This document shows positions 11,568-12,869 of a stretch of 64,000 bases of DNA, piece by piece (position 1 is the stretch's first letter; every line of letters begins with the position of its first letter). Under the pieces are notes generated by a model. That model ran no database searches. It worked only from the letters and a program-made list of their open reading frames with translations, and had not been told where the DNA came from. Source of the stretch: Oleisolibacter albus (GTDB lineage Bacteria; Pseudomonadota; Alphaproteobacteria; Azospirillales; Azospirillaceae). The stretch spans positions 62,001 through 126,000 of the forward strand of contig NZ_QGNJ01000011.1 of NCBI RefSeq assembly GCF_003336875.1. Direction: 5' to 3'. The position numbers were made by a program, and so were the translations under genes.

Positions 11568-12266
11568 TCACAGCCCGGCACTGCGGCGGGCGGCGCGGCC
11601 GGCGCCATAGGCCGCGGCGTTGATGGCCAGGGCCAGCAGCATCAGGATCAGGCCCAGCCCCAGGGCCAGGGCCAGATTGCCCTTCGAGGTCTCCAGCGCG
11701 ATGGCGGTGGTCATGGTGCGGGTGTGGCCGGCGATGTTGCCGCCGACGATGATGACGGCCCCCACCTCGGCACTGGCGCGGCCGAAGCCGGCCAGCACGC
11801 CGGTCACCAGCGAATGGCGCCCGTCCCACAGCAGGGTGGGCACGGCGCGCAGGCGGCCGGACCCCAGCGAGCGCAGCTGCTCCCCATATTCGGCCCACAG
11901 ATCCTCCACCACCTGGCGGGTGATGCTGGTGACGATGGGCAGGATCAGGATGGACTGGGCCAGGATCATGGCGCCGGGGGTGAACAGCAGGCCCAGCGCC
12001 CCCAGCGGGCCGGTGCGCGACAGCAGCAGATAGACCAGCAGTCCGGCCACCACCGGAGGGAATCCCATCAGGGCGTTGATCAGCACCACCACGGGACCGC
12101 GGCCGGGAAAGCGCACGATGCCCAGCAGCGCCCCCAGCGGCAGGCCGACGACGCAGGCGAGCAGCAGCGCGCTGAGCGTGACGCGCAGCGACAGCAGCAC
12201 GATCTCCACCAGCGTCTCGTCCGCGCCGGCAATCAGCGCCAGCGCCGCCGCAAAGGCGTCACCCAT
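11568..12266 (-). CDS. tupB: TupB, tungstate-type ABC transporter permease
   Basis: A 232-residue inner-membrane permease with about five or six membrane helices. The ABC permease EAA-loop region is seen as EYGEQLRSLGSGRLRAVPTLL near residues 125-150. The length and the N-terminal MGDAFAAALALIAGADETLVEIVLLSL are typical of TupB rather than ModB. It is the first gene of the minus-strand tupB-tupC-tupA-regulator-fdhD-mobA run; its promoter must lie within 12267-12650, a region shared with the divergent sigma-54 gene. Confidence 0.9.
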   Translation of the reverse strand: MGDAFAAALALIAGADETLVEIVLLSLRVTLSALLLACVVGLPLGALLGIVRFPGRGPVVVLINALMGFPPVVAGLLVYLLLSRTGPLGALGLLFTPGAMILAQSILILPIVTSITRQVVEDLWAEYGEQLRSLGSGRLRAVPTLLWDGRHSLVTGVLAGFGRASAEVGAVIIVGGNIAGHTRTMTTAIALETSKGNLALALGLGLILMLLALAINAAAYGAGRAARRSAGL

Positions 12267-12468: not shown

Positions 12469-12504
12469 TGTCCGTTCCCGGACAGGGGTGTCCGGTTCCG
12501 GACA
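12469..12504 (+). promoter_or_regulatory. Two tandem 16-bp palindromes, probable enhancer for a sigma-54 activator
   Basis: TGTCCGTTCCCGGACA at 12469-12484 and TGTCCGGTTCCGGACA at 12489-12504 are palindromes with TGTCCG/CGGACA arms and a 4-base centre. They are spaced exactly 20 bases apart, two helical turns. They lie about 160-180 bases before the predicted sigma-54 start site, the usual place for enhancer-binding activators. Extra CGGACA half-sites are at 12522, 12654 and 12682. I do not recognise which activator uses this motif. Confidence 0.7.
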
Positions 12505-12630
12505 CGGAGGCCGGCGCCCATCGGACAGGCGGGTGGTGGTTTCCGCGACTTGCTGCGGGGGGCCGTCATTTTGTCGCGCCCCACCCCCAGCATGTCTGAA
12601 TTTTTCAAGGAAAACCGAGGCTTCCGGCGG

Positions 12631-12647
12631 TTGGCACGCCTCTTGCT
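12631..12647 (+). promoter_or_regulatory. Sigma-54 (RpoN) -24/-12 promoter
   Basis: TTGGCACGCCTCTTGCT matches the sigma-54 consensus YTGGCACG-N4-TTGCW at every fixed position, with correct GG to GC spacing. The predicted start site is near 12658, giving a leader of about 44 bases to the ATG at 12702. Confidence 0.85.
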
Positions 12648-12701
12648 TTTTGTCGGACAGGCGCGGACGGCGCCGCCAACCCGGACATGAGGACGCGACC
12701 G

Positions 12702-12869
12702 ATGACCATCCTGACGCTGACCACGCCGAAATCCGCCAAGATCCGTGCGCCGCAGGGCCGGCTGGCCCGCCTGTGGGATGCGATGCCCAGCATGACCGAT
12801 CTGGTCGAAACCACGACCGTGCTGTCGGTGGCGCTGATCATGGTGCTGTGCCTGAACGCCCTGCTGTGA
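12702..12869 (+). CDS. 55-residue C-tail membrane protein under sigma-54 control
   Basis: A small protein beginning MTILTLTTPKSAKIRAP and ending with a hydrophobic helix (about residues 36-55, VLSVALIMVLCLNALL). The N-terminal half is basic and polar, so it probably has a cytosolic N-terminus and a tail anchor. The ATG at 12702 has a GAGGA site 8 bases upstream; an in-frame ATG at 12687 lacks one. The sigma-54 promoter and twin palindromes directly upstream show that it is a real, switchable gene. I do not recognise a family. It is transcribed away from tupB. Confidence 0.7.
   Translation: MTILTLTTPKSAKIRAPQGRLARLWDAMPSMTDLVETTTVLSVALIMVLCLNALL

What the first reader, a model, noticed from the sequence alone, without database searches (positions are those of the whole stretch)
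12469..12869. Sigma-54-controlled 55-residue membrane protein with twin palindromic enhancer
A flawless sigma-54 promoter (12631-12647), two TGTCCG-N4-CGGACA palindromes exactly 20 bases apart at about -180 and -160, and a well-placed ribosome site all serve a tiny tail-anchored protein that gene callers would miss. Such investment in regulation for 55 residues implies an important switch. It sits divergent to the tungstate uptake and Moco operon. The palindrome does not match a sigma-54 activator site I know, and extra CGGACA half-sites run into the leader. This is my best candidate for an undescribed small regulatory system.
Basis: partly seen in the sequence, partly recalled or inferred. 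Interest (0 to 1): 0.7.

Follow-up and report, generated by a model that had tools for sequence, protein, structure and literature searches.

The report
Stress-type small membrane protein, two enhancers
A tiny, easily overlooked bacterial membrane protein sits behind a switch that appears to be wired to two separate envelope-damage alarms at once, a two-component system that also controls an export pump and, probably, the phage shock response.

Summary
In detail: two exact TGTCCG-N4-CGGACA palindromes 20 bp apart, a sigma-54 promoter and a 55-codon ORF. The ORF looks like a real gene: its family occurs in 21 of 82 Azospirillaceae genomes, often as sigma-54 mini-operons of 1-3 paralogues. The palindrome is very probably the site of an NtrC-type response regulator (RR). 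In this genome its only other exact copies lie between that RR-kinase pair and a divergent sigma-54-driven MacA/MacB-like exporter operon; 16 of 16 complete orthologous exporter promoters carry it, and so do 36 of 36 distinct peptide promoters in genomes that keep the kinase, against 0 of 3 in genomes that lack it. It recurs before about half of the pspA operons tested and is probably a PspF site; psp operons here begin with a similar small membrane protein. Best reading: an unlinked, Psp-like small membrane protein activated by two enhancer-binding proteins (PspF and the exporter's RR), joining two envelope-stress circuits. It is a regulated output, not a regulator. Shown: conservation, motifs, co-occurrence. 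Inferred: binding, induction, function. New variant of a known kind.

The parts
12469..12484 (+). palindrome 1, upstream activating site for the exporter-linked response regulator (RR), inferred
   Evidence: exact TGTCCG-N4-CGGACA; starts 163 bp before the sigma-54 element
12489..12504 (+). palindrome 2, RR site, inferred
   Evidence: exact TGTCCG-N4-CGGACA; starts 143 bp before the sigma-54 element
12522..12527 (+). extra CGGACA half-site, meaning unknown
12564..12578 (+). second palindromic element gGCCA-N5-TGGCc, probable PspF site
   Evidence: motif found de novo in 39 peptide-A promoters; window site 15.1 bits, 14.7 with the site left out of training; random 80-mers from four stretches of this genome, window included: 99th percentile 9.2
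12632..12647 (+). sigma-54 (-24/-12) promoter; transcript expected to start near 12658 (inference)
   Evidence: exact match, only one in the window
12689..12693 (+). ribosome binding site GAGGA, 8 bases before ATG
   Evidence: sequence
12702..12869 (+). 55-aa small membrane protein (peptide A family), C-terminal helix 31-54
   Evidence: family in 21 of 82 family genomes, this one included; model helix 31-54, mean pLDDT 85-96 in the blocks from residue 31 on

Best explanation
The ORF encodes a small inner-membrane protein of the envelope-stress type, with a polar N-terminus, a short amphipathic stretch, and a C-terminal transmembrane helix that starts at an invariant Glu and ends the protein. 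RNA polymerase with sigma-54 waits at 12632-12647. Two enhancer-binding proteins can open it: PspF (freed from PspA on membrane damage, as known from E. coli) from the site at 12564-12578, and the NtrC-type RR of a two-TM kinase/MacB-like exporter module from the twin palindromes at 12469-12504. The exporter promoters have only the RR site and the psp operons, as far as seen, only the PspF-type site, so this protein is the shared output of two alarms, probably OR-like. Shown: gene conservation, both motifs, sigma-54 promoter, co-occurrence with the RR-kinase and exporter, a small membrane ORF leading pspA. Inferred: binding of PspF and RR to these sites, membrane insertion, and a membrane-stabilising role like that of PspG or other Psp membrane proteins.
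For: Peptide A in 21 of 82 family genomes; kinase orthologue in 18 of 82 and adaptor in 17 of 82; all 18 kinase genomes have peptide A. RR-type palindrome (<=2 mismatches) in 36 of 36 distinct peptide promoters of kinase genomes and 0 of 3 of genomes without it; shuffled rate about 1.1% per promoter. 16 of 16 complete exporter promoters have it with sigma-54 and a small ORF. Of 38 sigma-54-like sites in the own genome, 2 have the palindrome within 260 bp upstream: this one and the exporter. RR-kinase-exporter with related palindromes also in Kordiimonadales and Alteromonadales. Second motif: 36 of 39 peptide promoters (these 36 trained it), 0 of 16 exporter promoters; 13 of 27 psp promoters >=9 bits, against 2.6% of shuffles and 3.6% of coding windows; own second pspA operon 8.8 bits and a Toastrack (DUF2807) gene 10.2 bits. 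PspF present (507.6 bits, cut-off 443.55). A small membrane ORF follows the divergent sigma-54 promoter in 27 of the 30 PspF loci fetched, profile match to peptide A E 9.6e-5. Coding: median dN/dS 0.39 in 83 close pairs. Kinase with two TM segments 5-10 residues apart in the four sequences looked at.
Against: No binding or expression data. The own pspF-pspA promoter scores only 4.5 bits with the second motif, although it holds GGCCA-N5-TGGCG, and 14 of 27 psp promoters are below 9 bits. The motif model was trained on peptide promoters of related genomes; three peptide promoters (those of G019, G012 and G001 left out of training) do not reach it. The peptide A/psp-leader match is weak (probability 58%) and both are short TM peptides. 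A paralogue in the same genome (C12) lacks the RR palindrome despite the RR being present. dN/dS says nothing for the window ORF itself: against the 39 others pS and pN are about equal (saturated or too distant), and over all pairs pN exceeds pS in 251 of 780. The genomes are related, so the counts are not independent. No Psp family among the Pfam hits.
Confidence: 0.6

Rival explanations
1. The small peptides are substrates of the co-regulated MacA/MacB-like tripartite exporter: leaderless hydrophobic peptides made in multi-gene operons and sent out of the cell, as staphylococcal phenol-soluble modulins or leaderless bacteriocins are (recalled), with the RR-kinase sensing the peptide or its damage.
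Against: 3 of 21 peptide-A genomes have neither exporter nor kinase hits; no exact peptide-A-type promoter in 30 genomes with the exporter module outside the family (0 of 30); N-part net charge runs from -6 to +5, not a cationic toxin pattern; the C-terminus is a well-formed TM helix.
Confidence: 0.15
2. The ORF is not a protein of interest: the transcript acts as an sRNA or leader, or the ORF is a type I toxin-like or spurious frame.
For: Short, monocistronic here, no NCBIfam or Psp-type Pfam hit; no informative dN/dS for the window ORF itself.
Against: Pro and Glu are invariant and the TM conserved at 27-47% identity to the window ORF; dN/dS not above 1 in 82 of 83 close pairs of the family; duplicated as coding units.
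Confidence: 0.06
3. The second element belongs not to PspF but to another regulator, and the protein answers only to the exporter's RR plus an unknown factor.
For: Own psp promoter scores low (4.5 bits) and 14 of 27 psp promoters are below 9 bits.
Against: In the own genome the sigma-54 sites with 8.8 bits or more are this promoter, a second pspA operon, a Toastrack gene and two sites inside genes; strong palindromes stand in pspF-pspA regions of genomes that lack peptide A, such as CGCCATAATATGGCG.
Confidence: 0.17
4. The palindromes serve the divergent tungstate/Moco operon.
For: They lie about 200 bp upstream of the tungstate-type permease gene that starts at 12266.
Against: No sigma-54 site on that strand there; the palindrome travels with peptide and exporter promoters, and tup/Moco-type neighbours were not found in 24 fetched stretches.
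Confidence: 0.02

Closest known systems
PspG of Escherichia coli (and other Psp membrane proteins)
   Same: Gene away from the psp operon under sigma-54 and one PspF enhancer site (PMC3709507 passages); small inner-membrane protein (recalled)
   Different: No Psp family among the Pfam hits; here a second enhancer-type site is present, genes are often multi-copy, and the protein is mostly 45-70 aa with one C-terminal helix
Two-enhancer sigma-54 promoter of qrr1 in Vibrio fischeri (LuxO and SypG, OR-like gate)
   Same: Two enhancer-binding proteins at one sigma-54 promoter joining two signalling pathways (PMC10162802 abstract)
   Different: There the output is an sRNA in quorum sensing; here a membrane protein, with two distinct site types
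Bce-type modules (intramembrane-sensing kinase plus FtsX/MacB-type ABC transporter)
   Same: Kinase with two TM segments and almost no loop between them beside an FtsX-type exporter (Bce features recalled)
   Different: Regulator is an NtrC-type sigma-54 activator and the pump has a MacA-like adaptor
Darobactin exporter DarBCD / ADOP permeases
   Same: Best family hits of adaptor and ATPase by E-value (NF038010, NF038007); for the permeases ADOP (TIGR03434) ranks first and DarB (NF038008) second
   Different: All below their curated cut-offs (the adaptor does pass the general TIGR01730, 155.6 over 94.9); no radical SAM domain among the 10 proteins scanned

Membership tests
PspF/sigma-54 regulon | sigma-54 promoter | tested here: met
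   exact match 12632-12647
PspF/sigma-54 regulon | PspF upstream site | tested here: inconclusive
   site of 14.7-15.1 bits; same motif in 13 of 27 psp promoters at >=9 bits, but own psp promoter 4.5 bits
PspF/sigma-54 regulon | true PspF in the genome | tested here: met
   TIGR02974 507.6 bits over cut-off 443.55
PspF/sigma-54 regulon | induction by membrane stress through PspF | not testable with these tools
   needs expression data
PspA/B/C/D/G protein families | sequence match to a family model | tested here: not met
   no Psp family in Pfam for any of 25 peptide-A members; the only hits were two weak unrelated ones
NtrC, AtoC, PrsR (PEP-CTERM), FlbD equivalogs for the RR | score over curated cut-off | tested here: not met
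   354.9/558.6, 346.2/714, 347.4/502.6, 312.3/750 bits
sigma-54 response regulator (general) | receiver, AAA+ sigma-54 and Fis-type HTH domains | tested here: met
   PF00072, PF00158, PF02954 over cut-off
Darobactin exporter / ADOP permease | score over curated cut-off | tested here: not met
   adaptor 215.5/450, ATPase 273.1/375, ADOP 344.8 and 312.2/622.3

The most novel reading that the evidence does not exclude
The peptides form a secreted or pump-handled family of membrane-active peptides, expanded in tandem operons, made and exported under joint control of a dedicated kinase-RR-MacB-type pump and the phage shock system, a link between Psp and peptide export that I have not seen described.
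Probability: 0.12. Interest if true: 0.78.

Novelty: new variant of a known kind. Interest (0 to 1): 0.52.

Why it matters
It puts an unannotated small-protein family on the map with its likely regulators, predicts that PspF regulons in Azospirillaceae reach beyond pspABC to multi-copy small membrane proteins, and predicts a sigma-54 promoter that reads two envelope alarms. It also defines a conserved RR-kinase-exporter module, from Azospirillaceae to Alteromonadales, with its likely DNA site. Each link is testable with single mutants.

Tried and rejected
Rejected: PEP-CTERM regulator PrsR, NtrC and AtoC as identity of the RR (all below cut-off). Rejected: darobactin system (below cut-off). 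Rejected: one-mismatch palindromes as further regulon members in this genome (at control level; no palindrome within two mismatches in the 260 bp before any other of the 38 sigma-54-like sites). First thought that genomes G002 and G009 lacked peptide A (one search gave one hit each, inside a 246-codon frame); the profile search showed three each; the promoter read in each has no RR palindrome. Peptide B (leader ORF of the exporter operon) against peptide A: no profile similarity (E 0.1, probability 0.6%); against the psp leader E 0.005, probability 7%, not claimed as homology. Class-wide peptide A search: 9 of 385 genomes at E<=0.01, of which 3 are the same genus and 6 are weak matches, 5 of them inside frames of 276-604 codons and one in a frame of 72. 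Class-wide psp-leader search: 6 of 289 genomes, 4 of them of the same family. Literature searches (listings, four papers opened in part) showed no description of this palindrome, this peptide family, the pspA-leading ORF or the exporter module; the library holds open-licence papers only, so this is weak evidence of absence. From the 19 rows, three were set aside before counting exporter promoters: L156 and L158 (two pieces of one gene in draft genome G005) and L157 (37% paralogue). From, L142 (an exporter promoter) was dropped from the peptide promoters. Of the 20 promoters, one (L040) is not followed by a peptide but by a transposase-like ORF, with a peptide copy about 1.1 kb further on.

Full report
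What is there. The promoter is the only exact TGGCAY-N5-TTGC in the 64 kb. In the whole genome the exact palindrome occurs four times, as two pairs. Copies with up to one mismatch are at the level of the reversed-pattern control, so only exact or clustered sites carry weight.

The other pair names the likely activator. The second pair (contig C6, L005:9057 and 9074) lies between two divergent units. On one side is a sigma-54 response regulator (receiver, AAA+ and HTH_8 domains) with a histidine kinase. On the other is a sigma-54 promoter, a 44-aa ORF (peptide B), a HlyD/MacA-type adaptor, an ABC ATPase and two MacB/FtsX-type permeases. The kinase shows two hydrophobic segments five residues apart (5-10 in the four orthologues looked at), a layout known for intramembrane-sensing kinases (recalled). 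Of 38 sigma-54-like sites in the genome (reversed control 5), two have the palindrome within 260 bp upstream: this one and the exporter operon.

Conservation. Peptide A, the family of the window ORF, occurs in 21 of 82 Azospirillaceae genomes, this one included. Many copies form tandem sigma-54 mini-operons of one to three paralogues; examples in G008, G007 and G011 were read. The joint pattern palindrome + 110-140 bp + sigma-54 occurs 20 times in 13 of 82 genomes, with none in the reversed control. In 19 of 20 the next ORF is a peptide A; in the other (L040) a transposase-like ORF stands in between. Kinase orthologues are in 18 of 82 genomes (E<=1e-40) and adaptor orthologues in 17 of 82 (E<=1e-60), nearly the same set: G103, a 730-contig draft, has the kinase but no adaptor hit. 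All 18 have peptide A; 3 of the 64 others do (G002, G009, G012). In the 18, 36 of 36 distinct peptide promoters hold the palindrome with at most two mismatches (18 exact, 10 with one, 8 with two); shuffled promoters reach this in about 1.1%. 'Distinct' means by the last 40 residues, so G023 is represented only through identical peptides of G031. In the three without the kinase, 0 of 3 do; the own paralogue on C12 does not either. Nine of the 36 lie on loci fetched with the palindrome pattern, but the same genes were found by the peptide profile alone. The genomes are related, so the Fisher values overstate the evidence.

Exporter promoters. Of 19 rows, 16 are complete orthologues; 16 of 16 have at least one exact palindrome, a second within two mismatches 17 bp (once 26 bp) away, a sigma-54 promoter and a peptide B ORF of 44-66 codons before the adaptor (alignment of 14). 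In 14 of the 15 stretches that hold an RR orthologue a one-mismatch palindrome (TGTACG-N4-CGGACA or its reverse) lies shortly before the RR start, suggesting autoregulation. A scan of genome contigs for the adaptor gave 64 loci; 14 are close (Niveispirillum, Nitrospirillum, Aerophototrophica and similar) and 50 more distant, many titled Kordiimonas, Emcibacter, Thalassotalea, Colwellia and the like. Among the 50 the RR lies beside the exporter in 49, the kinase in 48, and a palindrome within two mismatches in the 700 bp before the adaptor in 36 (my count; no chance rate computed for that stretch), often as TGTTCG-N4-CGTACA about 79 or 100 bp before a sigma-54 site. The palindrome therefore seems to follow this RR across two classes. 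No exact peptide-A-type promoter was found in 30 of those genomes.

The missed element. A motif search on 39 peptide promoters gave a second palindrome, gGCCActaagTGGCc, mostly at helically phased places about 68, 79 and 88 bp before the sigma-54 element (likelihood 244 against 71 for shuffles). 36 of 39 reach 9.4 bits or more; these trained the model, and the three others reach 3.5-4.2. The window site at 12564-12578 scores 15.1, or 14.7 when left out of training. None of 16 exporter promoters reaches 9.2 (best 7.0). In the own genome the same element stands before a second pspA operon (8.8 bits) and a Toastrack/DUF2807 gene (10.2 bits); two further hits are inside genes. PspF itself scores 507.6 bits against a cut-off of 443.55 and is found in 78 of 82 family genomes (77 over the cut-off). 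Of 27 psp promoters among the 30 best PspF loci, 13 reach 9 bits and 12 reach 13.5, against 2.6% and 0.2% of shuffles and 3.6% and 2.4% of coding windows. Against this, the own psp promoter scores only 4.5, although it holds GGCCA-N5-TGGCG, and several Niveispirillum psp promoters show a variant GGCGA-N5-TGG[CT]. I put PspF at about 75-80% for this site.

The psp link in the proteins. In 27 of the 30 PspF loci fetched a small ORF of 45-74 codons with a C-terminal hydrophobic segment follows the divergent sigma-54 promoter; in 25 of these a PspA start follows in the stretch read. Many share the MTD-T start and the Glu at the head of the helix with peptide A. Profile comparison gives E 9.6e-5, probability 58%, against E 0.1, probability 0.6% for peptide A and peptide B. 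This is suggestive, not proof, for short TM peptides. A similar ORF leads pspA in a genome of another alphaproteobacterial family. The survey of Psp partners that I read in part (PMC11237479, passages and section 17) does not mention it there; nor do the passages of PMC9239133 that I saw.

The protein. AlphaFold predicts a helix 31-54 (blocks from residue 31 on at pLDDT 85-96), a short helix 20-26 and a disordered start (mean 71.8). Among 83 close homologue pairs median dN/dS is 0.39, with 1 pair above 1, so the family is under selection as protein. For the window ORF itself the comparison is uninformative: pS and pN against the 39 others are about equal, and over all pairs pN exceeds pS in 251 of 780.

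Mechanism and standing. The simplest account is an OR-like sigma-54 promoter reading PspF and the exporter's RR and making a small membrane protein. Each half has a precedent: pspG, an unlinked PspF target in E. coli (PMC3709507 passages), and qrr1, where two enhancer-binding proteins act like an OR gate (PMC10162802 abstract). What the protein does in the membrane is inferred from company only. The main rival, export of the peptides by the co-regulated pump, is not excluded but is weakened by genomes that have peptides without the pump.

Noticed in passing
L244/L282 (G000:C33:85237-85428) and L271-L300: psp operons of the family begin with an unnamed 45-74-codon single-helix ORF: 27 of the 30 PspF loci fetched have it behind the divergent sigma-54 promoter, 25 with a PspA start after it.
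   Followed up: partly
L231 (G000:C5 near 45.3 kb) and L232 (C5:50537): A second pspA copy with its own sigma-54 promoter and 58-codon leader ORF, and a Toastrack (DUF2807) gene with a sigma-54 promoter, both with the PspF-like element.
   Followed up: partly
L140-L155, upstream of the adaptor gene: A separate small-protein family (peptide B, core NPDLWL, 44-66 codons) leads the exporter operon in 16 of 16 loci; perhaps a pump accessory subunit as AcrZ is for AcrB (recalled).
   Followed up: partly
L095 / L157 (G102:C24): A second, diverged copy (34-59% identity in tblastn pieces) of the RR-kinase-exporter module in one genome of genus g2.
   Followed up: no
L172-L217, L219-L222: The RR-kinase-exporter module with related palindromes is present in Kordiimonadales and Alteromonadales records; function unknown.
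   Followed up: partly
L021 (G000:C12:414174-414305): A paralogue of the window ORF with a sigma-54-like promoter (TGGCACGGCGGATGC) and the PspF-like element but no RR palindrome.
   Followed up: partly
L040 (G028:C3:46030-46194 and downstream): A peptide promoter separated from its peptide copy by a transposase-like ORF.
   Followed up: no
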